Assembly: GCA_002104905.1 (NCBI GenBank)
Contig: MCFE01000571.1
Location: forward strand, 1-56,859
DNA length: 56,859 bases
Origin: Basidiobolus meristosporus CBS 931.73
Taxonomy: Eukaryota > Basidiobolomycota > Basidiobolomycetes > Basidiobolales > Basidiobolaceae
Direction of reading: 5' to 3'
Below the pieces are notes generated by a model, which was not told the origin of the DNA, ran no database searches, and worked only from the letters and a program-made list of their open reading frames with translations. Numbering within the stretch: the first letter of the stretch is position 1; every line of letters starts with the position of its first letter. Positions 2,213-56,476 of the stretch are shown here, piece by piece. A program made the translations under genes and the position numbers.

Positions 2213-2215
2213 ATT

Positions 2216-12219: not shown

Positions 12220-12225
12220 TTCCAG

Positions 12226-15345: not shown

Positions 15346-15348
15346 AAA

Positions 15349-15705: not shown

Positions 15706-15747
15706 CTTGAGGGTGGTTTCTTCTTTCTTCAGGAGGGAGGTTTCTGG

Positions 15748-27928: not shown

Positions 27929-27951
27929 CTTTAGAATAGATTAAGGCAATC

Positions 27952-27964
27952 GGGGCTCATAACC
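27952..27964 (-). promoter_or_regulatory. Primer-binding site of copia K
   Basis: The minus strand reads GGTTATGAGCCCC directly after the 5' LTR. Its complement GGGGCUCAUAACC contains the anticodon arm of initiator tRNA-Met (GGGCUCAUAACC, anticodon CAU). This points to half-tRNA priming as in copia and Ty5 rather than 3'-end priming. Confidence 0.8.
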
Positions 27965-28333
27965 TGTTGCAATTTAAGAAGTGATTTGGATATAAGGAAC
28001 TTATCAAGAAATAGTGATAATAGTTGAACTGTTGTTTATTCATAAAGAAGCTCAGTATTTATACCTTTGTAGAAGTAATACAGCTGCAACACTAAGTAGG
28101 GAGGGTTTCTCAATATTCAGGAGCATTCTGTAACAGTTTCAGGGTTAGTACATAATGTTTCGTAATAGTGCTAATTTGATCCTGACTATAGGGGAATAAT
28201 CATAAGATCATATATCTGGAGAAAGTGGCGAAGTAAAGGCAGTAAATGAGTCCTACAGTGACTAAGACTAGCCTAGAATTGTTAAGTAAATTTTTAGCTG
28301 CTGAATGATACCAAATAGTCCAATATTTCAACA
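27965..28333 (-). repeat. 5' LTR of copia K
   Basis: 369-bp partner of 23648-24016, one difference. Upstream of gag on the minus strand and bordered by the TCCCC duplication. Confidence 0.95.
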
Positions 28334-29100
28334 TCCCCCCAACAACACATAACAGCTATATAGAGAGGTTGATGCACCATATTGCCTACCTATACTTAAA
28401 AATATTTGAAAATGTTGCCAAACATCCTCCCCATGCACCTAAAAATTAGAAACTAACAAGACAAAAGTAGAAACCAGGGAATAAGAGGTATGACTAAGCC
28501 ATTACAGGCCTCAAGTTTTGCCCTCAATTTACACCCTAATTGATTGGTCCTTGCACCATTATCAATTTGGACTATAGACCAAAGTACAACATCACCCTGG
28601 ATAATAGGACAATCAGCAATGTGCCCATCTAAAACAGTTCATTTCATGATCCACTGATCATCACCAAGACCAAAGTGTTATTAAACAATCATCAGGACAA
28701 GGACTGAGAATGACACAGAATATGTACAGGGTTTATTAGAGGAGATTCTGATTGATATAGGTACAAATGAATTTCGCATGGAGGTTTGCCCACAAGGGAG
28801 CAGAAAAGAATTTACATGCAAAGTATTAAAGGAAAGAGTTCACCTAAAACTGGCTATACTCCCTCTAGCAGCAACAATCAAGACAACATCAAAAAAAAGA
28901 TGGACCTGCTGGTGTTGAGAGATGTGACACAAATATAATGTGCAACAGGAAGCACCTAAAAGGAGACATTTGCCAGTAAAGTCATGCTAATACACAGCAC
29001 AGTTAGGCAGGGACATGACAAGTTACCAACACAATCAGTACATGGAGATACTACCCAAAAAGTCAGTATACCACTTGTGAAGAGGTTCTTGAGTTATTAA
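28334..29100 (+). other. Gypsy G 3' flank, with possible retropepsin relic
   Basis: Resumes the sequence interrupted by copia K. One plus frame near 28730-28800 reads EEILIDIGTNEF, loosely like a retropepsin (LIDSGA...) motif, but the order after an integrase would be unexpected, so it may belong to another element. Otherwise nothing recognised. Confidence 0.3.
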
Positions 29101-29359
29101 GATTAGTAAAAAACAATTTGGTCCATGAGTTGCTCTAATCCAGATCAGTTGTGAAGATTCCATCAGGAGACCACAATGATACCAGTGGCTCTGAATTAAT
29201 GACCATCTACACAATCTTGTGATGGGATCACAATGGCCTTTTGCTAATTTGTCAGCCAAATAAAGTTGTTAAAATATATTGGTGTTTGTACATTTTTTTG
29301 GCAAGGGTGGCATGGCATTGTTGCATTCTTAGCTCGCTTTACAGATATTAGAGTAGATC

Positions 29360-31260
29360 TAACAGACCAGTACATCCAATTGCCTTATATGGCAAGAAAC
29401 CTGATGGTTTTTTGATGGCCTCATTGCAAGCTCTGATGGCTTTATTGCAGCAGTATATCTTTTTAGTGTGTTGCTTGCCAAGTTGCCATCTATTTTGCAT
29501 TGCTGGTAAAATATACATCTTGCAAACATTTGCTTAGTTGTTGCATATTTGCCATAAATACCTCCTGAATATTTGCAACATACTTGGTATTTGGCCAATA
29601 TATTCCTTCTCCCAGCTTGATTCTAATCCCCCTTATAGGTGTGTTCTGGCTCATGTCTGTGTGAATTCCATATTAAATGGTGTAAAAGTTAGCTTGTGAC
29701 CACAAGAAATCCAGCATACTTTGGTAGAGTTTTTCTAATAGAAATTAGTTGCTTGTTGCACCCAACCCAACTTTGCATTACCTGATTGATTACACACACA
29801 TTGAGGCTGCTTAGCTTCTTAATGCCATAGGCATAGATGTCTCCATGAGCACATCTGTACTCAGTATTTTCCAGCTCTTCCTGGCTGTCCTCCATTTGCC
29901 AACTCTTCACATCCATGACAGACTTGAAGGTATTATTCTTGATGAGATTGGGTTATGGTAGTGCCTGCAACTTGATTCATCTTCCCATTTCCCCACACAT
30001 CTGCATCATAGGAAGCTCCCAAAAGGTAAAGCAAGGCCCAACATTCTCCACACACTGTGCACATTGGAGTAGAGAATGGATACATTAGAGGCAGAGATCT
30101 ACATGCTCAGCTCTATGTTTGCAACATAGCCGCCCAAATCCCATTACTAACTCTTTGCAAAGCAGCTGTAGATGTGTCAAGTTGGCATGGGCAATCCACT
30201 TCTTGATATATATCCCTGCAATGTCCTCATATGACTCCCAATGCTTCCAGTGCTCTCTTAATAGAAATGGCTTCAGTAGGACACTTAAATAAATAGATAT
30301 CCAGTTCATCTAGTCCTTGCACTTGTATTGTTAAGTGTGCAAATGAATGTTGATTGAAGCCTGTAAGAAGCACTTAGGGTATCAGAGACTCTCTATTTTC
30401 TTGCCTATTCATTCAAGTTTCTTCAGTAACTCAAAGGCTCATTTAGCTTGAAATGCTCCATGCACAACTTGGTCATTGTTAAAGGGATACTGTAGAAAAG
30501 TGATTGCATTGCTCTCAGAGGAAAGCTTTTGCCCCAGCAGATACCCACTACCTTAGGTGTCTTTGGTTTCTGACTAAATCCATATTCTGACCAATGGCTT
30601 TTAGCTTACCAGCTTTGCTGCAATTATGTGCTGACTTCTCTGTGTTCTCTCTGTGGGAATCTGATGCTGATTGTGTTGGTATTTGGACAATAGTGATGTG
30701 TGTGAGCTATGGAGTAAGTCCAATGGATCTCCCACATGAGATAGCAATACCATCCATTGTGCCCAGAAAAGTTGGCTATATTGCTGATGGCTAGGATATC
30801 TCCAAAGCAGATAATAATATATGGTTTTACATGACAGCCGTTTATTGTTATCCCACTGGAAAGTATACAAAGTTCATTGAGCAATGAATACCAGTAGCTA
30901 CCCAGGTTGGATGGTGATTTAGGCTGAGGTACCAGTGAGATAGCCATCAGATTTCTGCTCTAATACTGTAAGATAGGCAGCAGATTCAGGTTAACAAGAA
31001 TTGGTGGCCAGCAGGATTTGGTGATAGTGTACTTGTTCAATGGGAAAACATCAGGTGCCAAGGAAAAGGCATGGTCAAACATACCATCAGAATTGCCCTT
31101 GCTTTGTGGCTGTTTATAATGTTTGCCATCATACATATCTGATATGTTTGCAAATGATTGATACTGAGTGCAGTACTTTATAGCTTCACAATATTTGTTA
31201 GATTGCATGAGCTTCTTTACACAGAGCATTCCAGGAATATATCCAGAGTGTGAAGAATGT
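29360..31260 (-). pseudogene. Tnp2-like transposase remnant (CMC copy v)
   Basis: Minus-strand pieces of the transposase. 30960-31229 has SLAPDVFPLNKYTITKSCWP then NLNLLPIL, resembling the Tnp2 (Transposase_21) pattern ALD.F.P......WP..L...NLPP. 30624-30947 has SYWYSLLNELCILSSGITING and CFGDILAISNIANFSGHNGWY, resembling Tnp2 GD.PA..K...F.GHN. About 30490-30580 has GICWGKSFPLRAM, where DxMH is expected. 30085-30309 and 29689-29916 are C-terminal pieces (KKWIAHANLTHLQLLCKEL). Frameshifted and inactive. Confidence 0.7.
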
Positions 31261-31890
31261 TTTCCCCAAATGGCTGGGGATTCTTGACAAGTTGGTCAAC
31301 CTTGCAATTGTGGCTCTAGTACCCATTACAAGCAGGGCCAAAGCCCCAAACCAGCATCAAAGAGGCATCAGGTTGCTGGAAGAGTGCCAATAAGGGAAAA
31401 GCAGGTAGACACAGATGCACCAGCTCAGCATTTATTATGGAAAAGTGTAGTTCTAATCAAGAAGCATTCATCCAAAGTAGCAGTGAAGGACCAAGCTGTC
31501 ATAAAAACAAGCAGCTACCTCAGAAGCCTGTTGCAGCATAGGCCAAGAGCTTAAAACAAGCAAGAAAGCAGTGTCAGATTGCTTGCAGATTGCCAGCAAG
31601 GAACATGCATACCAAACAGATGCATCAGAGCAACATTTATCAAGGTAAAACTTATTTAATACTAGAAGCACTCAGACAAAGTAGCAGTGAAAGACCTGGC
31701 AGTGATAGGGAAAATGGTAAAGGGCAAAAAGTCCACCCAAGCCAGTGATAGGGAAGTGTAAGAAAAAAGCTGCCATTCTGGCCAAATAATACTTTATGCA
31801 TGGAAAAGACTGGATTCAATCATAGCCAAGAAGAATTCCCAACAAGATAACAGCTGCTTTTATAAGAGTTGGTAGTGCAGCCAGTTGAGC

Positions 31891-32258
31891 TGCTATGATC
31901 TGCCGCTTGAATGTTTAATTTAGATCAGTTTTTAGTCAAACCAATTAGTATATGTTTAGGTTATCAGTATATCAGTATTATCTATCAAATTGGTAGCATT
32001 AGTGAGCAAATGAATCAGCAGATCCTTATCAGACAGAAATAGATATATTAAGTAGGATATTGTTGGGTGATGATGATACAATCAAATGAGTCATCAGCCA
32101 CAACCTACATTAGGAAATACAATTAGTCAGCAATTGATCTGGCAAAATGTATATAAGGAGCTGCTGGAACCTCAATAAAAATCAGTTCAAGTTATAGTGA
32201 ATACAATACTAGCTAAACTCCCTATTCCTCTACAACTCTTATACCAAGACTTGTAACA
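31891..32258 (+). repeat. 5' LTR of gypsy B
   Basis: 368 bp, TGCTATGATCTGCC...CTTGTAACA, with 'aatgtatataaggag' near 32146 and 'aataaaaatc' near 32176 as TATA and polyadenylation candidates. Followed directly by the TTGGTAGCAGCAAT primer-binding site. Confidence 0.88.
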
Positions 32259-32272
32259 TTGGTAGCAGCAAT
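32259..32272 (+). promoter_or_regulatory. Primer-binding site of gypsy B
   Basis: TTGGTAGCAGCAAT immediately after the 5' LTR, identical to gypsy A. Confidence 0.65.
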
Positions 32273-32316
32273 AACCAGAAACCTCCCTCCTGAAGAAAGA
32301 AGAAACCACCCTCAAG

Positions 32317-35300
32317 ATGTCGGACAATCAAGAATGGAAGAATGCCATGCAGCAAATCCTGGCCCAACAGCAACAGTTACTCCAGGTCCTCAGCCAACAG
32401 CAACAAGGAATGACTACCATGGCTCAGAGCTAGCAGAGCCCTGTTAAGAGCAATTATAGTGTGAAGGTCAACCAGTACCATGGCAGAGTCAATGAAAACC
32501 TGGGAACTTGGCTCTTTCAGATTGAAGAAGCTCTTAAAGCTAAAGGAATTGCTCCAGAAAGCAAGTTGTTTTGTGCAGCTTCTTACCTGGCAGATGCAAC
32601 CTTACAGTGGTACCACAATAAGATCAGGTCAGCCACTATGATGGGATGCTCTACAATCTCTACCTGGAATGAGTTTGTGTCAGAAATTCAGGATGCTTTT
32701 GAGCCTCCACACTAGCAGACACTAATAAGAAGGAAGTTAAATACACTCAGACAAAAAGGAATGGTGCAAGAATACATCCATGAGTACAGATGTCTACTTG
32801 GACAAGTTGAAAGAATGGACCCCCTGGCTCAAGTTAAATACTTTACTGAGGGGTTGAAAGAAAGAATTTGCAAGGAAGTGAATTATTGAAGACATCAGAC
32901 TTTTGAAGAAGCCATCAAGATTGCCATTGACTATGACTCAGCTATGTTTGGAGTTGGGAAGCCTACAGTGACTAACAAGAAAGGGTGTAATCATTATGAA
33001 AGAAGACAGTCAGAAGCAGTACCAATAGAAATAGACGCTATGCAGAAGAATCCTACCTCAGTAGAATGAAAGAAGAAAGGACTTTGCTTCAATTGCCACC
33101 AGCAAGGATATATTGCAAAGTACTGCCCCAAGAGAAGAAATGGACACCAGCCATTGAGAACCTTTAACCGTATTGAGGCCATGGAGCATAGTTACATGGA
33201 GGATGAGCTTGAAGAAGACTCAGAACTCACCTTCCACATAACAGAAGAATACCTATCTCAGATGACCTCAAACTCAGGAAAGCTATTATACTTGAATGGA
33301 GTAATCAATGGAGTACCTGTCAAGATCATGATTGACTCAGGAGCATTGCATGAGTATGTGTCAGAGCAATTTGCTCCAAAAGCTGGAATCAACTCAGAAC
33401 CTACCAAATCAACTTCAGTCTCAACAGCTGATGGGAACTCTCACATAATCAACCATATTACTCAGCCAGTAAGAATGAAGATCAATGACTTTGAAGAAGA
33501 CCTTCAGGCTTATATATTTGGTAACTGCAAGTTTGACCTTGTACTTGAAAAAACCTGGCTATTTTGCCGTAATGCATCAATCAACTGGAGAACTAATGCT
33601 ACTCAGATCCAAAAAGACAACAAGACCTATGAGCTATTACCTGCCAGGCTGGATTTCAACTTGGTCAATTCCAGTATGGGTGAGACAAGTGAACTTAGCA
33701 AGACCAAGTTCTGTAGAGCGCTTAGTAAAGGTACCCATATGTTCCTCATGGCAGTATTACAGGAGGATTCCACTACCCCAGCACCCCAGCAGGTCCAGGC
33801 TCTCTTGAAGAAATATTCAGATGTGTTTCTAGATGAGCTTGTAAGCTTACCACCAGCCAGAGATGTGGATCATGCCAATGACACAGGAGATAGCCCTCCA
33901 GTGCGCAAGATAGCTTACAGAATGAGTCCATTGGAATTGGAGGAAATGAAGAGACAAATTGATCAGCTATTGGAGCAAGGATACATCAGACCCAGCAAGT
34001 CACCTTGGGTGCACCAGTGCTTTTTGTGAAAAAGAAGGATGGAACACTTAGGATGTGCATTGACTACAGAGCCCTGAACTCAGTTACCGTCAAGAATAAG
34101 TACCCCATACCTCAGATTGATGAGCTTTTGGACCAACTTAATGGAGCTACTATTTTCAGCAAGATTGACCTCATGTCAGAGTACAACCAGATTAAGGTGA
34201 AGCCAGAAGACATCCCAAAGACAGCATTCAGGACCAGATATGGACATTACAAGTACTTAGTCATGAGTTTTGGCCTCACCATGCCCCTGCAACTTTCATG
34301 ACCCTGATGCAGACTGTCTTCCAGGAGTACTTAGACAAGTTTGTCATAATCTACCTAGATGATATACTGATATATTAGCAAGACAGAAGAGGATCACTTG
34401 ATGCACATTGAAAAGGTCTTGAAGAAGTTAATAGAGAACAAACTCTATGGCAAGCTAGCCAAGTGCAAATTCTCCAAGGAACACGTTGAATTTCTGGGAC
34501 ACATAGTGACTAGCACAGGAGTAACCTTAGATCCTAACAAGGTGGAGGTAATTAAGAATCTGAAGCAGCCCCATAGCATATCAGAGCTCAGATCATTCCT
34601 TAGAATGGTTTCCTATTATTGAAGATTTGTAGTACACGATGAAGCACTCTACCAAATTGTTGATGGAAGCCCTATTGCCTATTGCCCTTATGTTTCTTGC
34701 CTGGATTTGATACATAAGCTACACAATGGATATGGACATCTTGGAATTGACAGAACCTATAGTCTTATGAAAGCCAAAGCATGGTGGCCCATAATGAAAC
34801 AAGACATTGAGAAGCTAGTGAAAACATGCCCAAATTGCCAAAACAACCAATGCCAATCACAGAGAATTGCCTAACTCTTTCCCTTGGAGCCTGTAAGTCC
34901 ATTTGAAAGATGGGGAATTGACTTTATTGGAAGACTGCCAACTACCAGGAAATGCAACTGTTGGATCCTAGTAGCAATTGACCATGCCACTAAATGGCCA
35001 GTTGCTAAAGCTGTACCAATAGCCGGTGAACAAGAAGTTGCAAGTTTCATTTACCATGAGATCCTGATGAAGTTTGGATGCCCTGTGGAGATCTTATCCA
35101 ATAGAGGAGCAAACTTTATGGCAATGACATTAGAGGCTTACCTGGAAATTCAGCAGATCAGACACTTGAAAGCCTTGGCATATGACCCCAGAACTAATGG
35201 AGTCACTGAGCGGTTTAATGGATTATTTGGAAAAATGCGGACCAAGTATGCAAATGGAGTTGTCAGTAAATGGGATGAGTATATAGACCAAGCACTCTTT

Positions 35301-35747
35301 GCATGCAGAGTCAGAGTACACAACACCACCCAGCAATCACCATTTTACTTAGTGTATGGATGGGAACCAAGAATTCCAGGAGATCTCACACAACCAAAGC
35401 TTACAGACACCTTAGAAGATGAACTCAGTCAGCCAAGTAGACACCAGCAACTGGAACAAAGACGTCAAGAGGCACAGACCAAAGTATCTCAAAGTGCAGA
35501 AAAGATGAAGCAGAGATCTGATAAGACTATAGCACCAGAAGCATTGACAGTTGGGAACTTTGTATTGCTCAGAAACAACACTTGGAAGAAGTTTGAGCCA
35601 CAATGGATAGGACCATTCAAGATCATCAGAGAATGTCCATTTGCAACTTACCAACTGGTGGACAAACAAGGCAATATCCGGGAAGACTTAGTGCATAGGG
35701 ACAGACTCAAGCTTGCAAGACTTGCTGATAATACTGAACCATCATGA
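32317..35747 (+). pseudogene. Gypsy B gag-pol pseudogene
   Basis: Same order as gypsy A. Gag starts MSDNQEW at 32317, with stops at 32431 and 32713 (TAG where A has CCG and CAG), 32887 (TGA) and 33067 (TGA). The protease has [10 protein letters not shown] (33154-34029 frame). Single-base indels near 34008, 34282 and 34376 break the reverse transcriptase. About 654 bp encoding the C-terminal reverse transcriptase and the RNase H are missing at 34628, precisely between two ATTTGT repeats of the intact form. The integrase is open at 34884-35747 ([23 protein letters not shown]), again with Asn at the second catalytic position. Confidence 0.88.
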
Positions 35748-35805
35748 TATTGGTATCATAAGAAAAGAGATTCAGGAGAACCCTCTCAACTTTAGTAGGG
35801 GTGAA

Positions 35806-36173
35806 TGTTATGATCTGCTGCTTGAATGTTTAAGTTAGATTGGCTTTTAGTCAAATCAATTAGTATATGTTTAGGTTATCATTATATCAGTATTATCTAT
35901 CAAATTGGTAGCATTAGTCAGCAAATAAATCAGCAGATCCTTATCAGACAGAAATAGATATATTAAGTAGAATCTTATTGGGTGATGATGATGCAATCAA
36001 ATGAGTCATCAGCCACAACCTACATTAGGATATGTAATTAGTCAGCAATTGATATGGCAAAATTGTATATAAGGAGCTGCTGGAACCTCAATAAAGATCA
36101 GTTCAAGTTTTAGTGAATACAATACTAGCTAAGCTCCCTATTTCTCTACAACTCTTATACCAAGACTTGTACA
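35806..36173 (+). repeat. 3' LTR of gypsy B
   Basis: TGTTATGATCTGCTG...CTTGTACA, preceded by the polypurine tract TTTAGTAGGGGTGAA. It is clearly more diverged from its partner than the LTRs of gypsy A are from each other, so this insertion is older. Confidence 0.85.
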
Positions 36174-37158
36174 AAGCTACACTCTAGCAAGCCAGATGAG
36201 TTTGCAGAGAAAGGCATTTCATCTGCCAGAGCCTCCTCATCCTCCATTGCTGATGGAGTGGAGATCCCACTGACAGACAAAGTAGCAATGTCAAGAACTG
36301 AAAAGGCTATCATGATGCCTTCAGTGGAATATTAGAACATGAATAGGTGCATCAAGAGGTTGCAGCACTTCTTCAAGAGCAGTGGTTAAGAAAATGCACC
36401 TGAATATTGCAAAGACCTGTTTCAAAGACTGGCAGATGATGAGCCAGACCTTGCAGTGCTGGCTGAAGACTAGGATGCATGGGAACCAGTGAATAAACAA
36501 TGGCACAAAGACATAGGGTTCCCACCAACGTCATGGAAACAGAGCATTACATTAGAAATACTTATTGAGTAATAGATCCTGATGGAGTTACTTGCTGAGT
36601 GTGGGGTTGGGCTTAATGTCAGTGTAGGGGATGGGGACTAGTGTAGGTCAATACAATTGGCAATTGATGTACAACCAAAGTTTCAACAGAAATAAATAGA
36701 TTTGCATGCATGAAAAATAAGAGAAATATGTGAGTCAAGTAGCAAAGAGTATGAAAAAGAGGCAATAACCATATGTATGGTTCAACAGAATTGGCAATTG
36801 GGGTACATCTGAAGTTTCAATGGAAGTATATCTATTTGTATGGGTGAAAAGTAAGAGAATTAGCGCCGTCAGGAAGTAAGGAGTATGAAAGAGAGGCAAT
36901 AGCCAATCAATGTGCACAAACATAGGAGGTGACTGAGTCTCTGGGATCAGAAGGTAAGAACAGTTGCAGAGAACCAATCTAAAGCCACTTTTGTAATGTT
37001 GTGCTGGGAAATTTGACCAAGTTTTTTATGAGATCTGGGGTGCAATTATTTCTTGATGGTCTTTGCATGGTGTCCTGATGGAATCAATACTTAATAGTTA
37101 TGGGGCTTAGATTCTGTGATAACCTATTGACAGGATCATCACAATAGTTTTCATAGGG

Positions 37159-39677: not shown

Positions 39678-40093
39678 CTGTACAGTCTTTGAAGCACTAC
39701 AGCAGTGCACAAAGATAAAGCCCACAAAGAAACCTTTCAGCATGGGAGGAAGACACTGTGGTGCCCTATGAGAAATTATTGTGATGATCCTGTCAAAATG
39801 CCATCACATACCCTAAGTCCTGTGACTATTAGGTATTGATTCCATCAAGACACTGCTCAGAGACCCTCAAAAATAATTGCACCCTAGATATCATACAAAA
39901 CCTGGTCAAACTTCTTCATCACAAAAATACAAAAGTGGCTTCTGATTGATTCTCTGCCAATTTTCTCACTTTCCAACACCAGAGACTCAGTAACCTCCTA
40001 CATTGGTGTACATTGATTGGCTATTGCCTCCTTTTTGCACTCCTTATTACCTGACTCAACCATTTCTCTTATTTTTCATGCATTCAAATTGAT

Positions 40094-42155
40094 TTATTCC
40101 TGTTGAAACTTCAGTTGTACCTCAGTTGCTAATGTATTGAACTATTCAATTCCCTATAACCTACACCAACAATTAGCCCAACCTCACACTCAACAAGTAA
40201 CGCCAGTAAGATCCACCACTCATTAAGTATTTCTGCTGTAATGCTCTGTTTCTACATACTTGGCAGGAGCTCTGCAGCTTTATGCCATTGTTTATTCACT
40301 AGTTTCCATACATCCTGGTCTTCAGCCAGCTCTACAAAGTTTAGCTCCTCATCTGCCAGTCTTTGCAATAAGTCCTTGCAGTATCCAGGTGCATTTTCTT
40401 GATCACTGCTTTTGAAAAAATGCTGCAACCTCTTGGTGTGCCTATTAATGTTTCTAAATTCCACTATAGGCAAAGTGATAGTCTTTTGAGTACTTGATAT
40501 TGCCACTTTGTCTGTCAGTGAGATCTCCACTCTGTCAGCAATGGAGGATGAGGAGGCTCTGGTGGATGAAATGCCTTTCTCTGCAAACTCATCTAGCTTA
40601 CAGAAGTGTAGCTCAACTGGCTGTGCTTCCAACTCTTATGAAAACAGCTGTTTTCTTGTTGGTAATTCTTCTTAGCTATGATGGTGTTCAGTTTGTTTCA
40701 GGCTTACAGTGTTAATTGGCAAGAACTGCAGCTTTTCTCTTATGCTCCCTGTCTCTGGCTTAGGTAGACTTTTTTCCCTTTACCTTTTCCTTTATCACTG
40801 TCAGGTCTTTCACTGCTACATTGTCTGAATGCTTCTTGTATTGAATTGTGTTTTTTCCATAATGAATGCTGCTCTAATGTATCTGTTTTGGCCTGCTTGT
40901 TCCTTGCTTGTACTCTGCAGGCAACCCAACACCTCTTTCCTGCTTGATTTGAGCTCTCAGCCTGTGCTGTGACAGGCTCCTGAGGTGGCCACTTGCTTCC
41001 ATCATTGCCAGGTCCCTTACTGCTACTTTAACTGGGTTCTTCTCAGGTAAACCTACACTTTTTCCTTTGTAAATGTTGTGCTGGTGCATATGTGTCTGCC
41101 TGCTTTTTGCTTATTTGCACTCTTCCTGCTACCTGATGCCTCTTTGATGCTTGATAGGAGCTTTTGGCCCTGCTTGTAATGGGCTCTCAAGGAAGCCACT
41201 AGTTTTAGCCATTGCACCCATGCTCCTCTGCCTTTAATAGTCTCAGCTTTTCTTGAGATAGTTTCCTAACATACCTATACTGGCCAAAAAAAGTGTGCTG
41301 GTTTCAATTGGGAATAATGCTCATGAAGATAGTTAAGCACATTCTGCATGGCCATGAGTTTCTGATGGTCCCATTATATGCTGGCCTTGAGGTGTTGGCA
41401 TGCTGGACTTTTAATAGCCTATTGAATATTAGGTCATTCTTCATCATTGCACTCAACGCTTCACAGATCTTCAATATCATTTGATTCTTAGACATTGGTA
41501 TAAACCCCACATTTGTGCCCTTCTATGGTGTGAGAGGTTTTCTGCAGGCATTATCATTGGGCACTATTGTTGTGCCTCAAAGACTGTACAATATTCCTTG
41601 ACTGTTACATTGGGAAGTGGCTCAATTCTTGGCAGTGATGTTGAGCTACTTGAGTTCCTTCTTTGCAGCAAAGATACTGCTTTTCTAGCTAGGATATTGA
41701 TTGCTTTACACCTTTTGTCCACTCATCCTGTCTCTGGATTATTTCCTGATTTCCCTGGGTCATTGCATCTACCCTATCAGCCACTGCACCCAAATACCTC
41801 ATTAATGCTTTGGTATGCACTGACAACATACTTGCTAATATATGTGGTGGTGATGTTATGACAGCCACTTGCTGGTCTTCAACTGAAGGTACTGCTTTTG
41901 CTACATTCTCATTGGCCTCAGCAATATGGTCAGCTTGTAGCTCCACAGATATTCCCAGCTGCCTACTTGACTGAGAACCTGAGGAGCCCACATTGTTCCC
42001 TTCAGTGGGCACACTGTCCACAGGGCCTTTTTTGGTTGTAGCTGTGCTTGTTGCACTATATGTCAAAGCAAGCTGTTGTCCAACTGTTATTCTGCTGCAG
42101 TCAGCAGGGGGTTTGGTTGGGAACTAGACAACTTGGCTTTATTTTTTGACAGCAT
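40094..42155 (-). pseudogene. R1 accessory gene (copy ii), about 687 codons, frameshifted
   Basis: Starts at ATG 42155 (MLSKNKAKLSSSQPN) and ends after QLKFQQE at TAA 40094-40096. The span of 2062 bp nearly equals copy iii without its insertion (2065 bp). Order: Ser/Thr/Gln-rich N-terminus; predicted coiled coil (GAVADRVDAMTQGNQEIIQ and QDEWTKGVKQSIS, 41689-42066); KIKLTE-like middle; two 207-bp tandem repeats at about 40800-41210; C-terminal block RNINRHTKRLQHFFKS (40252-40632). The protein family is not recognised. By analogy with TnpA of En/Spm it could bind element ends, but that is inference. Confidence 0.7.
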
Positions 42156-42494
42156 ATATGTGGAAGGGAGTAAAACCAAAGGTGGAATTGTGTTACATAG
42201 ACACATGTATGTGGTGCCACAACTTTATTTGTAATGCCTACTATGGTGAGTCATCATAGAGTTTTACATTCATGTAGGTGCAATATTTCAAATACAAGAC
42301 TGTCTCAAACTGACATAAGTACTGACAGAAAGTAAAATAATAGTATTGTGTAGTTGAGTGTCAAACTGTTTGCCCCATGGACTAGACTAGTTTGATACAA
42401 TGCTGTAAGAGAAGAAAAAAAGACCATCCATTAAGCATGTGGAAAGCATAGGAAGTATTACAACAGTTACAGCCTTTGTTTTGTCACACAAGTC
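42156..42494. promoter_or_regulatory. Divergent intergenic region of CMC copy ii
   Basis: About 340 bp between the R1 start codon and the first transposase frame. The R1-proximal part is conserved in copies ii and iii ('ccacaactttattt', 'ttacattcatgtaggtgcaat'), which suggests a shared bidirectional promoter. No individual element can be assigned. Confidence 0.4.
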
Positions 42495-44940
42495 ATGTTT
42501 GATCACTCACCGGTCACTACAGTACCAATGATATCTTGCTGGCTACTTGATACTTTACTCACAGCATCTGGCTGTACTTGTCACCTTGCGCAAGCCAAGT
42601 CAGGAGAGTTTGTGATGCATTTAGGCTTACCCCAGCCTTCTCTATATGGCATGCAGAGTGATAGCTCTGAAGAAGCAGGCTCACTGATGGATTGTGAGCC
42701 TATCTTCCCAACACCAGTACCATGCATGAGCCCAGCAAAATCCCATATGCAATGAGACAACACTCACGGAAAATATACCAAGGATACTTTATGGAATTAA
42801 GTGAGCCCAGTAATCAATTTACTGGTGAATGATGTGATGTTGTGGCTAGAGGAGTGGAGTGATTCCACCAATGTCATAATGGGGGCTTTGAGGATTTACT
42901 ACTACTTTTTGCTAAAACCATCCTGGGATGCAACTTATCATATACATAGTATAAATGGAAAAGCATCATGCAGCTGGCAACATATGACCCAGAGACCGTC
43001 CTGATACCAGCATGTGCTTACTGTTGCATGGTGCTTACATCAGAAAATGCCACAACTGCAAGGTGTCCAACTTGTCAGGAATACCCCACCATTTGGGGAA
43101 AGCATTCTTCACACTCTTGATATATTCCAGGAATCACTGTCCAATCTGGATAGCTACCTGTATCCATTGCTGGATAAATTTTGTATGCTTTCCAGTGAGA
43201 TAACAATAAATGGCTGTTGTATAAAAGTACAAATAATTAGCTGCTTTGGATATACCCCAGCCATCAGATAGATAGCAGCCTTTCTGGGCACAATGGATGA
43301 TACTACTATCAAATGTGGGAGATACAGGGTACTCACACCATAACTCACATACTTTATTATTACCTAAACACCAACACCAAGAACATCTTTCCACAGAGAA
43401 AATGTACAGAAGTAAGCATGCAATTGCAGCAAGGCTGGCAAGCTCAAAGTCATTGGCCAGAATATGGAATTAATTGCAAACCAGAGATACTTAAAATAGA
43501 GGGTATCTGTTGGAGCAAAAGCATTCCACTGGGAGCAATGTGTTTGCTTCTCAACAATATCCCTATACTGATGACCAAGTTGTACATGGGGCATTTCAAA
43601 CTAAATGAGCCCTCTGAGATACTAGAAAAATTTGAAAGTGATGGCAACTTATTACAGAGTATCCACTAGACTACATACTTGTCATAGGCTCCAGTCAATA
43701 CTCATATGAATATTCAGCAATACAAGTGCAGGGACTGGATGAACTGGATTTGTATTTATTCAGGTGGCCTTCTGAAGCCATTTCTACCAAGAGTTCACTG
43801 AAAGCATTGGGAGTCATATATGGACACTGTAGGAATGCTTTTCCAGAAGTGCATCACCAATGCGAACTTGACACATCTACTGCTTTTGTGCAAAGAGTTT
43901 GTGAAGGGATTTGAGTGGCTATAAAACAAACATAAAGCTAATTGTGTAAATCTCTGCCGCTACTGTATTCATTTGCTACTCCATCTTGCTTGGTGTGTTG
44001 AGAATATTGGACCTTGCTTCACCTTTTGGGAGTTTCCTATTGGGTAGATGTTTGGGGAGATAGGTAGACAAGTCAGGTTGCAGCTATTACCACATCCCAA
44101 TCTCATAAAGAACAAGGATCTTCCTAGGAAGCAGATATGTGGGGAGATAGGAAGATGAATCAAGTTGCAGGTACTACCATACCCCAATCTCATCAAGAAT
44201 AATACCTTCTAGTCTGTTATGGATGTGATGAGCTGGCACATTGAGAACAGCCAGGAAGAGTTGGAAAATACTGAGGTCAGATGTGCACATGCAGACACCT
44301 ATGCCTATGGCATTAAGAAGCTAGGCAGCCCCAATGTGTAGGTAATCAGTTAAGTAATGCAAAGTTGGTTAGGTGCAACAAGCAACTGATTTTTTTGTAG
44401 GAAAATGCTACCAAGGTTGGTTGGATTTCTCTTGGCCACAAGTCAATTTCTACACCATTTGATACGGAATCCACACAAACAAGAGCCAGAACACATCTAT
44501 AAGGGGGCCTAGAATTTAGCAGGGAGTAGCAGTATACTGACTAAAACCAAGAAGTTCTTTACATATTCAGGAGGTACTCATAGCAGATGTGGCAAAACTA
44601 AGCATATGTTTGCAAGATGTATATGGCACCAGCAATGCAAGATAGATGGCAACTTTGCAAGCATCACACTGAAAAGCCATACAGTTGAGGTGATAGAAGT
44701 ATGTCAGCTGCTGAGGTGTGTGGGTCCATGGAGGTAGGTAAGCAGGAGGCCATAGCATATTTTGATTCAAACTATATGTGGGGTACCCATTATAGTAGCG
44801 GGTAAGCAAATAAAGAGAGGTGATTCTATAGTACAATACATGAATTGTGCAAAGGGACGTAGAAAAGGAAATACCACTTGGTAAATTAATACAGTAGCAT
44901 TATACAGAACTAGCTGTGGGCTGCCATACTGCTGTGATAA
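42495..44940 (+). pseudogene. Tnp2-like transposase of CMC copy ii
   Basis: Plus-strand remnant, frames at 42495-42755, 42801-43004, 43014-43271, 43313-43669 and 43726-43914. Recognisable segments: CAYCCMVLTS and CPTC (possible zinc site); SNLDSYLYPLLDKFCMLSS followed by GCCIKV and CFGYTPAIR (Tnp2 GD.PA pattern); SHWPEYGINCKPEILKIEGI, then SIPLGAMCLLL where Tnp2 has P.DxMHLL; and LFRWPSEAISTKSSLKALG toward the C-terminus. The expected Asp of DxMH is Gly here. Several frameshifts make this copy inactive. The best identification is the Tnp2/Transposase_21 family; other GHN-type DDE transposases are possible. Confidence 0.65.
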
Positions 44941-45280
44941 TGCCCTCAATGGCTTGCAAAGAGGCCATCAAAGCATTGTCAAGTTTTTTGCCATCAAAGG
45001 CAATTGGATGTGCTGACCAGTTAGATCTACTCAGACAGTTGTAAAGCACACCAAAACTGCAACAATGCCATGCCACCCTTACTAAAGCATTATACAGGCA
45101 CTTTATATTTTATCAACTTTATTTGGCTGTAAAATTAGCAAACACTGTTTTCATCCTGTCACATGATTGTGTAGTTGGTCATTTGTTCTGAGCTGCTGGT
45201 ATTATTGAGGTCTCCTAATGTGATCTTGACAGCAGAGCTGGATTGGCTCCACCTGCTGGACCAAGTTACTTTTTGCAGGG

Positions 45281-46744
45281 GTGTTTTTTCCCCAAGCCTA
45301 AAAAACAGAAGACATTAAAGATCAATAAAGATATTGGGTGCAATGATAAAGAGTGCGCTAATCTTCAAGAGGTCATTAAAGGTCTTGCATGGCAGCACCT
45401 CAAGGAGAGCATACTGTAGGACCATTAGGACCTCAAGGCTCAGCAGAGTGTGTTTGACCTGCTCTATGAGCATTATCCTGGCTTCAAGTAAGCAAATGGA
45501 CTATTGGCCAGCATTGGCATGCTAAGTAAGTTTCCCAAGAGTAGCAGAAACCACTAAAGGCAGAAGAACAAGGGTGCCATGGCTAAAAGCCAGCAGCTTC
45601 CTCATCAGTAATGCAGCATATATCAAGGAAACAATGTAGTTTAATACAAGAAGCATTGAGTCAAAGCAGCGGTGATGGGCCTGACAGTGACACTAGCTTG
45701 CAGCTTTCTCAGAAGCCTGTCATATGTAGAGCTGAATGTTCTAAATAGGCACTAAAGAAACATCAGGTTTCTAGGGGAGTGCAGGCAAACATGAATGCAA
45801 CAGTGCAGCATTCATCAAGGATGGATTGCGGTACAATACAAGAAGCAATCAGTCACAGTAGCAGTGATGTATATGAAAGTGGTAAAAGCCCATGTCTTTC
45901 TCTGGAGCCTGTAACAAGCAGGGCTGAAAATTCTAAAACAGCAACACAAAAGCATCTGGTTGCCAGCAGAGTGCTGGCAAGGGACCAACAGGCATAAGAA
46001 GATATCTTAGTGTAGCATTCATCATGGAGAATACATGGTACAATACAAGAGGCACTAAGTTAAATTAGCAGTGAAAGATTTGGTAGTGATAAAGGCAAAG
46101 GTATTCAGAAACAATTTAGCAAGCCACAGACACGAAAGTGCCAGAAGAAAGTTACAGGTCTCATCAATTGATACCATCAGCCCAGAACATGATTAATCCC
46201 ATCATGGCTAAGAAGAATTACCAACAAGACAGCTGTTTTCTCAATAGTTGGAAGTGTAGCCACTTGGGCTACACTCCAGTGAGGTAGATGAGTTTGCAGA
46301 AAAAAGCATCTTGTCTACTGCTGCCTCCATTTTCTACATTGTAGACAGAGTAGAGATCCTACTGATGGACAAAGCACCAGCATCAAGAGCTCAAAAGACT
46401 ATCACTTTGCCTATGGTGGAATTTTGGAGCAATAATAGGCATACCAATAGGTTGTAGCACTTCTTCAAAAGCAGTGCTCAAGAAAACACACTTGAATATT
46501 GCAAGTGCTTATTACAAAGACTGACAGATAAGGTGCTAGCCCTTACATGGCAGAGGCCCAATTGAAAGCCACTTATGTATTGGTGTGATGAAAAGTTTTG
46601 ACCAAGTTTTTTGTGAAATCTGGGGTGCTACTATTTTTCAAGAGTCTTTGCATGGTGCCCTGATGAGAGCAATACCTACTGGTCACAGGACTTTAAGCTT
46701 GTGATGGTTTTTTGACAGGATCATCACAGCTATCTTGCATTGGG
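45281..46744 (+). pseudogene. R1 accessory gene remnant (copy iv)
   Basis: Continues 39678-39763. It contains the middle region (CNDKEC-type segment near 45340), three tandem repeat units (anchors near 45666, 45858 and 46075) and the C-terminal block around 46380-46520 (decayed NNRHTNRL and CSSSKAV in shifted frames). The site where gypsy B inserted in copy v is intact here ('cttgggctacactcc', 46252-46266). Confidence 0.65.
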
Positions 46745-50900: not shown

Positions 50901-52330
50901 ATAGTAAGTTCTTGGCTATTTCTGCCACACAGAGTACCATTTTAAAGGTCAGTGTATGGCCTCCTTCACTGCTTCTAAGGTTTACTTGAATAGTTCCTTC
51001 TCCCACTGCATTAGGTGTTCTATTGTCACTCATGAAAACCTTCTCAAATGGAATTTCTTGATATTGAGTAAGTAGTTCTTTTTCGTGTGTAAAGTGTCGG
51101 TATGCTCCAGAGTTGATGTACCATGTCTGAGAATCCTTGTTTGTGGTCATATTTAATGCAGATGTGAACTGTCTATCTTCAGTTGTTGCAGTATTTCCAT
51201 GTTCAGGCTTCTTTTGCTGATTATTCCTCTTTTTGAGACACCTGTCAGATATGTGTCCTTTCCTTTTGCAGTGGTTGCAAGACAGGTTGTTGTTGCCTTT
51301 GTAAAGTCTTGGGTACCTCCTATGTTGGTTATCACTGCCTATTAATGCATTTTCTTCTTCCTTCTCATTGACATTTGATTTTCTTAATTCTTCATCCAGG
51401 AGCCGTTAATATATGTAATTCAAGGTCAAATCATCAGTTCTGTACCCTAGGGCGGATACAAGGCCATGAAACTTGTCTGTCAGGCTATTCAGGATGGTAA
51501 CTATCACATCCTCATCAGTAGCTGGTACACCCACAGATTCCATTGCACCCACCAGCTGTGTAATTCTGTTAGTTAGATTGTTCATTTCTTCCCCTGGCAG
51601 CATCTTTGTAGTAGAAAATATTTGTCTCAGATACATTCACTTAGCAGCTGAACATGACTGGTAGGTGTCTTCTAATGCTATCCAGGCATTCTTTGCCATT
51701 TTTGCTCTTGAGCATTGAATCAGCAATTTGTCTGCAACATTAAGTCCAATTCAGCCAAAGGCACTTTGTTCTTTCTTCTGGTACTTTAGGCTTCTTCTCC
51801 CATATTTTTAGGAGGGCATTCTTCTCCCATGAAAGCATCCCAAAGGCCTCTTTCTTGTAGCAGCATCTTCATCTTCACCTTCCACACTTGGCAGTTAGTG
51901 TCGTAAAAATTTGTAATTCCACCTAAATATTCACCTAAATTAGTCACTTAGATCATCACATTCATATCCTAGAAAATACTGACCAAATTCCTTGTTGGAA
52001 TTTACTTAGAATATTTTCACCTAAATACCAGATACCCAGAACATGAAAATTCTCAAAGCTGTCCAAACAGCCCCAAACTTTGCACATATGTTCTTGGGAC
52101 CTTCCTTAACCTATACTACGTGTTTGTTATTCCAAGACCAGGTTAGAGTATAAATACTACTTTTACATTCAATAAATCATTAAGTGAAAGCCACATAATC
52201 TACTTGTTCTCCAAATCACTTCCAATATCTCCAAGACTCTTACAACAGTTGGACCCATCCAACTTTTCAGCAGAGGTAAATGTTTTGGCAATAGCAGTAG
52301 TAGACATTGCAGAGAGTGGCAGCTTGGAGC
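47963..52330 (-). pseudogene. Copia E gag-pol pseudogene
   Basis: Minus strand. Gag begins near 52310 (AIAKTFTSAEKLDGSNC), continues across the solo LTR with QVWKVKMKMLLQ (51870) and 51406-51636 (STTKMLPGEEMNNLTNRITQ). Zinc knuckle near 51260. Protease at 50785-51150 has TWYINSGAY, so the catalytic Asp is Asn. Integrase at 49969-50650 has LTHSDLCGTM (first Asp kept) and HLPQQNGVAECANR. Reverse transcriptase at 48973-49500 has the segment DVKVAFLNGELDELIYM. RNase H at 47963-48733 has MATCEVTKEAVWLRKLF and IDIKHHFICEAIE. Numerous stops and frameshifts. No YVDD motif is preserved. Confidence 0.85.
51899..52247 (+). repeat. Solo copia LTR in copia E gag
   Basis: 349 bp, TGTCGTAAAAATTTG...CTCTTACAACA, in the opposite orientation to its host. 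It is flanked by GTTAG (51894-51898) and GTTGG (52248-52252), a 5-bp target duplication with one change. Removing it rejoins gag (SNC then QVWKVK). The plus strand carries 'gagtataaatact' near 52145 and 'caataaatc' near 52171. Confidence 0.88.
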
Positions 52331-52337
52331 AATAACC

Positions 52338-52686
52338 TGTTGTAAGAGTCTTGAAGATAAAGGAAGTGATTTGGGAGGTTAAGAAAATTATGTGGCATTC
52401 ACTTAAAGATTTATTGAGTGTAATAGTAGTACTTATACTTTTCCATGATCTTGGCATAAAAAACACATGAAATAGGTTAAGGAAGGTCCCAAGAACATGT
52501 GTGCAAAGTTTGGGGGCTTTTAAACAACTTTTTGAAATATCATAATCAAGGAACCTGATAATTTGGTGAAAACATTTTAAGTAAGTCCTAAAGAGAAATT
52601 TGGTCAGGACAGAATGCTAATGAAGTAATAAGATCTATGTGACTAAGTTAGCATGAATATGCAGTGATCACTTAATAGTTTCAACA
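52338..52686 (-). repeat. 5' LTR of copia E
   Basis: 349 bp, TGTTGTAAGAGTC...GTTTCAACA. It is followed on the minus strand by GGTTATTGCTCC, a decayed version of the initiator tRNA-Met anticodon-arm primer site, and then gag. Confidence 0.85.
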
Positions 52687-53260
52687 GAAAGGACAAACAT
52701 TGGACCCATGCTTCAAAAAGATAGATAATGATCAAAGAAGCCTGAATAAGAAAATGCTGCAACAACAGATGATAGACAACTCATATATGCAGTAAACATG
52801 ATTGCAAACAGGAATTATCAGACATGGTACATTGACTATGGTGCATTTCAACACTCTACATATCAAAGAAAACTTCTTACCCTATATCAAGAAATTCCAA
52901 TTGAGAAGGCTTTCACGAATGACAATACCCTATAAAAATTATTGAGATGATCCCATCAAAAGGCCATCACAAAGTTAAAGTCCCATGACTAAGAGGTATT
53001 GATCCTGTAAGGACATCATCCAGAGACCATTGAAAAATAGTTGCACCCCAGATTTCACAAAAAACTTAGTCAAAAATTTTCATCACAACAATGTATACGT
53101 GGCTGTTGATTGGTTCCCTGCCAATTTGCTCACTGTTTGATCCTGGATACTCTATTGCCTCCTACACTTGTGTGAATTGATTGGCTATTGCCTCTTTTTT
53201 ACACTCCTTACTTCCTGACTTAACTGTTTCTCTTATGTTTCATGCCTACATATTGATTTA

Positions 53261-55962
53261 TTACTGTTGAAACTTCAGTTGTACCTCAATTACCAATTGT
53301 ATTGGCCTATACAAGTCCCTATACCTTACACTAACATTAAGCCCAACACCACACTCCACAAGTAACTCCATTAAAATCCACCACTCAATAGGTATTTCTG
53401 CTGTAATGCTCTGGTTCCACAACTTTGGCGGGAATCCAAAAGCTTTATGCCACTGTACATTCACTGGTTCCCACACATCCTGGTCTTCAGCCGGCACTGC
53501 AAGGTCTAGCTCCTCATCTGCCAGTCTTTGCAATAAATCCTTGCTATATTCCAGTGTGTTTTCTTGAGCACTGCTCTTGAAGAAGTGCTGCAATCTCTTG
53601 GTGTGCCTATTGATGTTCCAAAACTCCACTGAAGGCATTGTGATAGTCTTTTGAGCCCTTGATGTTATAGCCTTGTCTGTCAGTGGGATCTCCACTCTGT
53701 CAACAATGGAGGATGTGGAGGCTGTAGTAGACAAATTGCCTTTTTCAGCAAACTCATCTACCTCCCTGGAGTGTAGCTCAACTGGCTGAGCTTCCAACTC
53801 TTGTGAAAACAGATGTTTTCTTATTGGTAATTCTTCTTGGCTATGATGGGATTTGGTCTGATCATGGCTTACGGCATTAATTGGCAAGAACTGCAGTTTT
53901 GTCTGCATGTCTCCCTGACTCATGCTTGGGTAGACATTTTTCCCGTTACCTTGTCCTTTATCACTGCCAGGTCTTTCACTGCTACTTTGTATGAGTGATT
54001 CTTATAAAGAGCTATGTTTTCTCCTGGATAAATTCTGCTCTGACGCATCTGTTTTGGCCTGCTTGTCCCTTGCTGGCACTCTTCATGCAACCTGACATTT
54101 CTTTTCCGCTTTTTTTGAGCTCTCAACCATAGTTGTGATAGACTCCTTTAAGAGCAGCTGGTTCTTATCACTACCAAGTCCATCACTACTACTTTGACTG
54201 GGTGCTTCTTGAGTGGTACTGCGCTGTCTCCTTGATAAATGCTATGCTGGTGCATCTGTTGTGGTGGTGTAGAGGTACTCCTGTGAGAAGCTTTACAACT
54301 CAAGGTGAGTGAGGTGTCTGATGGGTGCAATAACCTGTGTGTCTAAACTGCAGGTGTCTTTGTCAATATGTCACTATATTAAAAGCTCCTGCTTCTCTAG
54401 CTTCCTAGGTGCTCCAAGTGTCTCCAAAGGCCTCTATGTGTCTTGTGCACTACCCTGAAAAGCTCCTTGATGGCAGGTCTGAGATGTACTGTCAAAGGCA
54501 GGTGTAGTGATCAACTGCTAATCAATAAGGTAGAAGTGTTAGTGATAGAAGGGATGATTTATTGATGAGGGATTGCTTTCCCTGAAATACTTTTCCTGAT
54601 TGCCAAGTGATTACTGATGACAAGGTTCTAGAAGATTCTAGGCATCAGTGAAATTCTTGATGAGGTCACCATGAGCCAAAAATATGCCAAGAATGTCCTG
54701 GAAGGTTCTAAATGGCACTGCATATCCAACCAATCAGGAGTCAGTAGTCTGAAACCTGTGCAACATAGAAATACCATATATGGTATTGAAATGGTAGGGA
54801 TGGTAACACAGACCTAGGTCATGTGTCATAGGTACTGACATGGGTACTTGCCATATGTAGATACATATTTAACTAACCCTAACCCTACCACATTGTGTCT
54901 GCCTGCTTGTCCCTAATTGGCACTCTTCCAGCTACCTGACATCTCTTTGACACTTGTCTGGAGCTTTCAGCCCTGCCTGTAACAGGCTCTTGAGGAAGCC
55001 ACTGTTTTTTAGCCAAAGCACCCTTGTTCTTCTGCCTTTGACAGTTTCTGCTAATCTTAAGATACTTTCTTAGCATACCAATGCTGGCCCAAAATCTGTT
55101 TGCCCATTTGAGTCCAGGATAATGCGCATAGCAGAAGTCAAGTGCATTCTGCTTGGCCTTGAGTTCCTGATGGTCCCATTGTATGCCAGCCTTCAGGTGA
55201 TGGCATGCTAGACTTCTGGCAGCCTCTTGTATATTAGCCCACTCTTCATTATTGCACTCAACGGCATCACAGATCTTCAGTGTCTTTTGATTTTAAGCTT
55301 AGGTATAAACACCACATTGTCTCCCTCCCATGCTGTGATAGGTTTTTCTGTGAGCTTTATCTTTGGGCACTGTTGTTGTGCTTCAAAGACTGTACAGTGT
55401 ATCTCTGCTGTTACATCAGGAAATGGCTCAATTCTTGGCTGTGACATTGAGCTACTTAAGTTCCTTCTTTGCAGCAAAGATACTGCTTTCTCTACCTGGG
55501 ATATTGATTGCTCTACACATATTATCTGCTCATCCTGTTTCTGGACTATTTCCTGATTTCTCTGGGCCATTGCATCTATCCTATCAGCCACTGCACCTAA
55601 TTGCTTCATTTATGCTTTGTATGAGCTGACAACATACTTGCTAAAATGGGAGGTGGTGATGTTATCATGGCCACTTGCTGATCTTCCACTGAGGGTACTG
55701 CATTTGCTACATTCTCATCTGCCTGAGAATAATGGTCAGCTTGTGGCTCCACAGAGGTTCTCAATTACCTACTTGACTGAGAGCCTGAGGAGTCCGCATT
55801 ATTACCTTCAATGGGCACACTGTCCACAGGGCCTTTTTTGGATGTAACCCCACTTGTTGCACTGAGTGTCAAAGCAAGCTATTGTCCAACTGTTCTTCTG
55901 TTGCCCTCAGTGGTGAGGTTTGGTTGAGAACCAGACAACTTTGCTTTATTTTTTGGTAGCAT
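53261..55962 (-). pseudogene. R1 accessory gene (copy iii), best preserved, split by a Z LTR
   Basis: Starts at ATG 55962 (MLPKNKAKLSGSQPN), ends QLKFQQ at 53261. 2065 bp without the LTR and its duplication, about 688 codons. Parts: N-terminal Ser/Gln-rich segment with KKGPVDSVPIEGNN; coiled coil GAVADRIDAMAQRNQEIVQ (55277-55609) followed by MSQPRIEPFPDVTAEIHC and NVVFIPKLK; a middle block NNEEWANIQEAARSLACHH and LKWANRFWASIGMLRKYLK (about 54990-55270), possibly a helical DNA-binding region; two 207-bp (69-aa) tandem repeats (anchors at 53970 and 54177); an open 220-codon C-terminal block (53261-53923) with WNINRHTKRLQHFFKSS and EIPIEWWILMELLVECGVGL. A few frameshifts or stops separate the blocks. 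No known family recognised. Not Gag-like: no zinc knuckle. Confidence 0.72.
54260..54892 (-). repeat. Solo Z-family LTR in R1 of copy iii
   Basis: 633 bp, TGTGGTGGTGTAGAGG...AACCCTACCACA. Flanks CTGT (54256-54259) and TTGT (54893-54896) are a 4-bp target duplication with one change: the R1 consensus reads GCATCTGTGTCTGCC. Contains the uninterrupted version of the gypsy A insertion site near 54411-54430. Confidence 0.78.
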
Positions 55963-56105
55963 ATATATGGAAGTGAGTCAAACCAAAGGGAAAATAGTGT
56001 TACATACACATGTGTATTTGGTGCCATAACTTTATCTAAAATGCTTACTATGGCAGGTCATCATTGAATCTTACATTCATGTAGGTGCAATGTTGCAAAT
56101 ACAAG

Positions 56106-56476
56106 ATTGTTGGGCTATCAATCTGCCAATATAAAGCTATCAGAGTCTTGCTGTGAGGCTGTCAAAATACTGTCAAGTTTCTTGCCATATAAGGCAGTTA
56201 GATGTCCTGGCCAATTGGATCTACTTAAAATAGTTAAAGAGCGCAAAAAGATCACAACAATACCATTCAAATATTGTCACAGCACCAATAAAATATTGTC
56301 AAGTTTTATCCCTTTATTTGGTTGCAAAATTAGCAAAATACCATCATGATCCTGTCACAAGATTGTTAGGAGGGTCACTAATTCCAAGCTGCTGGTATTA
56401 TGATAGTCTCTAAATGGGATCCTGATGGCTGATCCAAATTGGATCCACCTGCAGGACCAAACAATTTTTGATAGGG
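56106..56476 (+). repeat. Transposase-side tail of CMC copy iii
   Basis: Non-coding 3' and subterminal sequence homologous to 44930-45280 (copy ii) and, reversed, to 17957-18239 and 29101-29390. Conserved blocks are 'tttatttggttgcaaaattagca', 'gatcctgtcacaagattgt' and 'ggatccacctgcaggacc'. Confidence 0.75.

What the first reader, a model, noticed from the sequence alone, without database searches (positions are those of the whole stretch)
39764..45280. Two-gene, divergently transcribed CMC-type transposon with an unknown partner protein
Copy ii is bounded by matching inverted termini (CCCT...AGGG) and an exact GTG duplication. It carries a Tnp2-like transposase on one strand and the unrecognised R1 gene on the other, starting about 340 bp apart. 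Copy v has the same arrangement in mirror image. Plant En/Spm elements encode a transposase plus a helper, but on the same strand and with CACTA ends. A fixed divergent pair with CCCT ends would be a distinct family. Termini, duplications and gene order are seen; the functional partnership is inferred.
Basis: partly seen in the sequence, partly recalled or inferred. Interest (0 to 1): 0.85.

Follow-up and report, generated by a model that had tools for sequence, protein, structure and literature searches.

The report
Two-gene jumping element in a fungus
The stretch is a real, many-copy "cut-and-paste" DNA transposon of a fungal genome that carries a transposase gene and, back to back with it, a second gene for a protein with no recognised relatives, so it looks like a new variant of a known class of mobile element.

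Summary
The finding holds in its main point. Window 39764-45280 is one copy of a roughly 5.8-kb CMC-type DNA transposon of a fungal genome: a Transposase_21 (tnp2) transposase on one strand and R1 on the other, an intronless gene of about 690 codons without a credible match in Pfam, PDB or the protein database searched (whose eukaryote cover is thin). Start codons lie about 222 bp apart, not 340. Termini are CCCTATGAAAAAT...ATTTTTCATAGGG. Of 19 places with both ends read, 9 have exact 3-bp duplications, 5 exact 4-bp, 1 fits either, 4 neither. Empty sites inside the window confirm GTG (copy ii) and ATA (52928-56476). Of 59 transposase places that could be judged, 55 have R1 divergent upstream. 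Shared variants are enriched for synonymous changes in both genes, which suggests selection on both proteins. Corrections: copy ii is dead; 52928-56476 has the same orientation and has lost its transposase; the mirror-image copy (29108-37158) has lost both gene starts. Two-gene CACTA elements and CCC ends were already known; the divergent pair with an unrecognised partner and the mixed 3/4-bp duplications I found in none of the papers seen. R1's role (TnpA-like cofactor) is inferred.

The parts
39764..45280 (+). Copy ii of the element, whole; inserted in the R1 part of an older reversed copy
39764..39781 (+). Left terminal inverted repeat CCCTATGAGAAATTATTG
45258..45280 (+). Right terminal inverted repeat ...TACTTTTTGCAGGG (diverged; many other copies read ATTATTTTTCATAGGG)
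39761..39763 (.). Target-site duplication GTG, left
45281..45283 (.). Target-site duplication GTG, right; single in the empty site at 55310-55313
40132..42155 (-). R1 gene, broken: start ATG 42155-42153 (MLSKNKAKL...), C-terminal part in ORFs 40252-40635 and 40132-40251
   Evidence: frame from L065
42156..42376 (.). Intergenic region between the two start codons (highest mean identity of the five blocks compared, measured on L065 coordinates)
42377..44900 (+). Transposase gene (Transposase_21), broken: stop at the third codon, and about 314 bp missing near 43130 that hold the presumed first catalytic Asp; 3' limit approximate
   Evidence: motif position counted by hand
52928..56476 (+). Second delimited copy, same orientation, ATA duplication, transposase deleted, foreign insert about 54260-54894, last 246 open codons of R1 at 53264-54001 (minus strand)
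29108..37158 (-). Mirror-image copy with R1 3' half and transposase 3' half; about 1.9 kb with both gene starts missing; split by a gypsy element (31891-36171); right end decayed

Best explanation
This is a family of CMC-supergroup (CACTA/EnSpm-like) DNA transposons of about 5.8 kb. Shown: imperfect inverted termini CCCTATGAAAAAT, 3- or 4-bp target duplications, a Transposase_21 transposase, a divergent partner gene R1 in a recurrent place and spacing, and a synonymous excess among shared variants in both genes. Inferred: cut-and-paste transposition by the transposase, with R1 as a helper expressed from the same intergenic region. R1 probably acts like plant TnpA: it would bind element DNA near the ends through its conserved basic central and C-terminal blocks, self-associate through its N-terminal heptad-like segment, and bring the ends together or regulate the promoter. 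I put the two-gene element at about 0.95 and the TnpA-like role of R1 at about 0.5.
For: Termini and copies. Target duplications: 15 of 19 exact, where chance gives about 1 in 64 for 3 bp. Transposase: PF02992 at E 1.7e-16; motifs ALALDGF, IGDTPA, CCxxC and WEFPMER shared with P0002, 47% identical over 67% (their reading as catalytic residues is recalled CMC knowledge). Pairing: of 82 transposase places, 40 have a listed R1 upstream and divergent (29 by the R1 N-terminal search within 3 kb, 11 more by the C-terminal search within 6 kb); no listed R1 lies on the same strand within 3 kb or downstream within 5 kb. 15 of 19 further places read by 101-bp probes also have R1 in that orientation. Spacing is 178-195 bp in 22 of 29. 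Selection: shared variants synonymous in 34.3% (R1) and 35.8% (transposase) against 22.7% and 22.8% for singletons, p = 5e-7 and 7e-5.
Against: In the copies whose frames I listed no copy has both genes unbroken. R1 has no recognisable domain, and its two fold predictions were unusable (mean pLDDT 41.3 and 44.8). Subterminal repeats that a TnpA-like binder would use were not convincingly found. A plain count of mismatches by codon position does not separate R1 (39% at position 3) from non-coding controls read in an arbitrary phase (intergenic 43%, left end 37%). One antisense frame of R1 also shows a synonymous rise (33.3% against 25.0%). There are no expression data. Four of 19 two-ended places show no duplication; 4 of 19 probed transposase places showed no R1 at the probed spot.
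Confidence: 0.8

Rival explanations
1. R1 is a captured passenger, a host gene fragment carried along by the element without a role in transposition.
For: No R1 homologue in the database searched, though its eukaryote cover is thin; a CACTA family of grapevine carries captured gene sequence in opposite orientation (PMC2528002, passages seen).
Against: R1 in the same orientation in 55 of 59 transposase places judged, spacing 178-195 bp in 22 of 29, and a synonymous excess in R1 like that of the transposase.
Confidence: 0.15
2. R1 protects the element from the host (anti-silencing, as proposed for transposon-borne TET/JBP dioxygenases in fungi) rather than helping transposition.
For: Fungal EnSpm, Plavaka and other elements carry a TET/JBP gene for that proposed purpose (PMC12730594, abstract and passages seen).
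Against: R1 pieces show no dioxygenase or other enzyme match in Pfam.
Confidence: 0.2
3. Two separate elements nested next to each other, each with its own ends.
For: Self-nesting is seen: copy ii itself lies in another copy; L023 and L032 also show it.
Against: Shared outer ends with duplications around independent insertions; near-constant spacing of the genes. A terminus between the genes was not sought by a search of its own.
Confidence: 0.02
4. R1 is a chance open frame, antisense or non-coding.
For: Codon-position counts alone do not set R1 apart from non-coding controls, and one antisense frame also rises.
Against: Frame open for 503 codons in L065 and 447 in L039; the synonymous share of shared variants is highest in the annotated frame (34.3%, others 27.6-33.3%).
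Confidence: 0.04

Closest known systems
Plant CACTA/En-Spm elements (TnpA + TnpD)
   Same: Transposase_21 domain, two proteins, 3-bp duplications
   Different: CACTA ends; in maize Spm the proteins come from one alternatively spliced transcription unit (PMC1636069), whereas here they are divergent genes; R1 was not compared directly with TnpA sequences
TRC elements of animals (SmTRC1, Tribolium, Aedes)
   Same: Transposase_21, TIRs starting CCC (CCCTAG in Tribolium), fungal relatives noted
   Different: 2-bp direct repeats reported for Tribolium and Aedes; SmTRC1 makes its proteins by alternative splicing; no divergent R1-like gene in the passages seen
Fungal EnSpm of Puccinia with TET/JBP
   Same: CMC transposase, 3-bp duplications, accessory gene in a fungal element
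   Different: CAC..GTG ends; the accessory gene is a dioxygenase
Plavaka, ESTA and CNEST
   Same: CMC(T) transposases of fungi
   Different: Ends TGT..ACA or CATCA..TGATG and 2-3 bp duplications for Plavaka; TA duplications for ESTA and CNEST
PIF/Harbinger (Nuwa) and IS3EU elements
   Same: Further gene beside the transposase; [quoted passage not shown]
   Different: Other transposase superfamilies; the Nuwa helper has a Myb/SANT domain, none detected in R1

Membership tests
CMC supergroup (CACTA/EnSpm-Mirage-Chapaev) | Transposase_21-type transposase | tested here: met
   PF02992 60.5 bits against cut-off 28.6, copy C665
CMC supergroup (CACTA/EnSpm-Mirage-Chapaev) | DDE residues with C(2)C and H(3-4)H motifs | tested here: inconclusive
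   Candidate D, D and CxxC conserved with P0002 and P0003, candidate E with P0002 only because P0003 ends before it; assignment recalled, H(3-4)H not checked
CMC supergroup (CACTA/EnSpm-Mirage-Chapaev) | Short duplications (2-5 bp for the wider CMCT group) | tested here: met
   15 of 19 two-ended places with exact 3 or 4 bp
CACTA/EnSpm proper | Ends CACTA or CAC..GTG | tested here: not met
   Ends CCCT..AGGG
CACTA/EnSpm proper | Strict 3-bp duplication | tested here: not met
   5 of 19 places have exact 4-bp duplications
TRC (CCC-ended animal/fungal CACTA relatives) | TIR beginning CCC with Transposase_21 | tested here: met
TRC (CCC-ended animal/fungal CACTA relatives) | Groups with TRC transposases in a tree | not tested
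   No TRC sequences in hand
TnpA-type helper (for R1) | Binds subterminal repeats | tested here: inconclusive
   TIR-core motif found 5 times (the termini included) against maxima of 2-4 in 40 shuffles; of three internal sites one is above and two are at the median of conservation. Binding itself not testable here
TET/JBP dioxygenase (for R1) | Pfam domain match | tested here: not met
   no such match up to E 5 in four R1 pieces

The most novel reading that the evidence does not exclude
A distinct fungal lineage of the CMC supergroup built on an obligatory, divergently transcribed two-protein system, in which R1, a protein without recognisable relatives, is a new type of transposition partner and the transposase staggers its cuts by 3 or 4 bp; it has probably reached thousands of copies in its host.
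Probability: 0.45. Interest if true: 0.65.

Novelty: new variant of a known kind. Interest (0 to 1): 0.5.

Why it matters
CMC transposases share motifs with Transib and RAG1 (PMC12730594) and are called understudied in fungi and animals (PMC12810828). A family with a recurrent two-gene layout would let one ask directly whether an unrelated partner protein is needed, how such a transposase comes to make 3- or 4-bp duplications, and whether TnpA-like helpers arose repeatedly. It probably also makes up a sizeable part of this host's repeats, which was not measured.

Tried and rejected
Separate nested elements: rejected (shared ends, near-constant spacing). R1-only subfamily: the junction of copy 52928-56476 was sought in the genome; of 40 scored places (2493 candidates) only itself and its 99% counterpart span it. 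R1 homologues: none at E 0.01 for the N-terminal 498 residues or the C-terminal 447 residues; the same database gave only 2 relatives of the transposase, so its eukaryote cover is thin and absence of R1 relatives is weak evidence. Pfam: nothing for the central and C-terminal R1 pieces, six weak matches under cut-off (best E 0.035) for the N-terminal piece. PDB: one meaningless match at E 0.029 to a profile in which two of ten rows are partly out of frame. Fold prediction: two jobs, both of low confidence, no fold search made. Subterminal binding motifs: inconclusive. Transposase relatives in viral contigs: none. Rfam: nothing in the window. Host species: not identified; paper searches by contig count and by one recalled candidate species led nowhere; nine chitin-synthase places (PF01644) point to a fungus. 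A first selection test on the transposase used one frame across a frameshift of the reference and showed nothing clear; it was redone piecewise. Structure prediction was limited to window sequences because that tool names the loci it accepts and those of the fetch from genomes are not among them.
Full report
Setting. The window is one contig (C837) of an 89,006,234-base, 1311-contig assembly. Nine chitin-synthase places (PF01644) make the host a fungus by inference; the species was not identified. A second contig, C1102, runs parallel at about 97% identity, so duplicate haplotypes are present. Two duplicates that I noticed were left out of the counts of duplications: C1102 for copy ii, and C657, which shares its flanks with C247. 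Others may remain.

Ends. Of 44 listed genome matches to the left-end query, 38 start at window base 39762-39767; of the other six, two run through the boundary (the window itself and C1102) and four start further in. Of 41 listed matches to the right-end query, 32 stop at 45272-45281; two run through and seven stop elsewhere. Only the best-scored places are listed. The terminus is CCCTATGAAAAATTATTG on the left and AAATTATTTTTCATAGGG on the right, with variants. Exact left 27-mers number 116, with up to 3 mismatches 813; exact right 23-mers 236; reversed-pattern controls 0. First-look candidates number 2013 to 6425 in the DNA and protein searches, so thousands of copies or fragments are likely; the number was not measured.

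Target duplications. Both delimited copies of the window have a paralogous empty site in the window itself: copy ii GTG, empty site at 55310-55313; copy 52928-56476 ATA, empty site at 51021-51023. Of 19 places with both ends read, 9 have exact 3 bp (copy ii, 52928-56476, C855, C728, C158, C599, C2, C247, C419), 5 have exact 4 bp (C120, C369, C502, C422, C411), C391 (AAAA) fits either, and 4 fit neither (C549, C665, C147, C418). In one search one end was not found where sought at C247 (found later), C770, C524, C562 and C515, and C535 was read on the left only; apart from C247 these are outside the 19. C147 and C418 were paired over 7 and 12.5 kb and may not be single elements.

Genes. The transposase of copy C665 (P0001, 523 open codons) matches PF02992 (60.5 bits, cut-off 28.6) and, just under cut-off, DUF1258. 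The protein database gave two relatives, P0002 (47% identical over 67% of the query) and P0003 (31% over 46%). The gene continues in further ORFs and seems to have one intron of about 59 bp near its 3' end, judged by eye. R1 is a single frame of about 690 codons in L065, interrupted there by one stop (503 + 190 codons), and open for 447 codons in L039. By eye it has an N-terminal heptad-like segment, a conserved central block, two basic Ser/Lys-rich repeats of about 70 residues, and a conserved C-terminal block. No credible relatives were found. The nearest ATGs of the two genes are 222 bp apart in L065 and in copy ii (counted by hand).

Pairing. Of 82 transposase places, 40 have an R1 hit in the lists, upstream and divergent: 29 by the N-terminal search within 3 kb and 11 more by the C-terminal search within 6 kb. 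No listed R1 lies on the same strand within 3 kb, and none downstream within 5 kb. Those lists hold only the best 150 of 4448 and 3013 candidates. The first 20 of the 42 others were probed with a 101-bp read upstream: one lay beyond the contig end, 15 of 19 matched R1 in the expected orientation (one of them about 200 bp displaced), and 4 did not (C1117, C740, C432, C422). So 55 of 59 judged places have R1, and 23 were not judged. The gap between the two protein matches is 178-195 bp in 22 of 29, and 243-1749 bp in 7.

Selection. The 84 alignments of 300 bp or more to L065 were used; columns within five of a gap, columns with fewer than 12 letters, and variants seen exactly twice were dropped. 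Variants seen once (mostly changes after insertion) are synonymous in 22.7% for R1 (332 of 1461). Variants in three or more copies (mostly inherited from moving elements) are synonymous in 34.3% (169 of 493; p = 5e-7). The transposase, read piecewise, gives 22.8% (222 of 973) and 35.8% (81 of 226; p = 7e-5). Wrong frames rise less: the two other R1 frames reach 29.4% and 28.4%, the antisense ones 27.6%, 33.3% and 29.4%, the other transposase frames 29.2% and 30.5%. Sites are not independent, so p values are indicative. Against this, a plain count of mismatches by codon position gives 39% at position 3 in R1, but 43% and 37% in the intergenic and left-end controls read in an arbitrary phase, and no excess in the transposase. 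That count proves nothing, and the case rests on the synonymous share.

Corrections to the finding. Copy ii is not functional: its transposase has a stop at the third codon, has lost about 314 bp near 43130 and holds an 87-bp tandem duplication. The copy at 52928-56476 has the same orientation and lacks the transposase through a private deletion. The mirror copy, 37158 to 29108, has lost about 1.9 kb with both gene starts. Copy ii sits inside the R1 part of an older reversed copy.

Comparison. CCC-ended TIRs with Transposase_21 (TRC) and two-ORF CACTA elements are in print (PMC1636069 and PMC4158355, passages seen). Fungal CMC elements with accessory genes and with 2-5 bp duplications are in print too (PMC12730594, passages seen). 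I did not see a divergent CMC pair with an R1-like partner in the searches made (listings only; passages of six papers; no paper read whole). Repbase and closed journals were not searchable, so a record there is possible. I call it a new variant of a known kind: by its transposase it belongs with CACTA-like transposons, and by its ends and its mixed 3/4-bp duplications it does not meet the strict CACTA/EnSpm definition.

Noticed in passing
window 23646-28343: Copia element with terminal repeats 99.2% identical over 383 bp and a 1309-codon open frame: a recent insertion.
   Followed up: no
C1102 (L017) against window 42926-42930: The parallel contig carries a copia-like insertion of about 4.7 kb inside its version of copy ii that the window lacks; the junction overlap is 5 bp.
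   Followed up: partly
window 1483-2213 and 51927-52660: Two long palindromes (83% and 75% self-complementary over about 740-756 aligned bp) that look like foldback elements.
   Followed up: no
window 11193-16131 and 31891-36171: Gypsy-type elements with repeats of about 366-369 bp at their ends and further copies of that repeat around; one splits the mirror-image copy.
   Followed up: no
L024 2683-3591 and 1172-2365: Harbinger-type DDE transposase frame (PF13359, E 3.8e-22) and, on the other strand, an unrecognised 397-codon frame: perhaps a second two-gene element next to this family.
   Followed up: no
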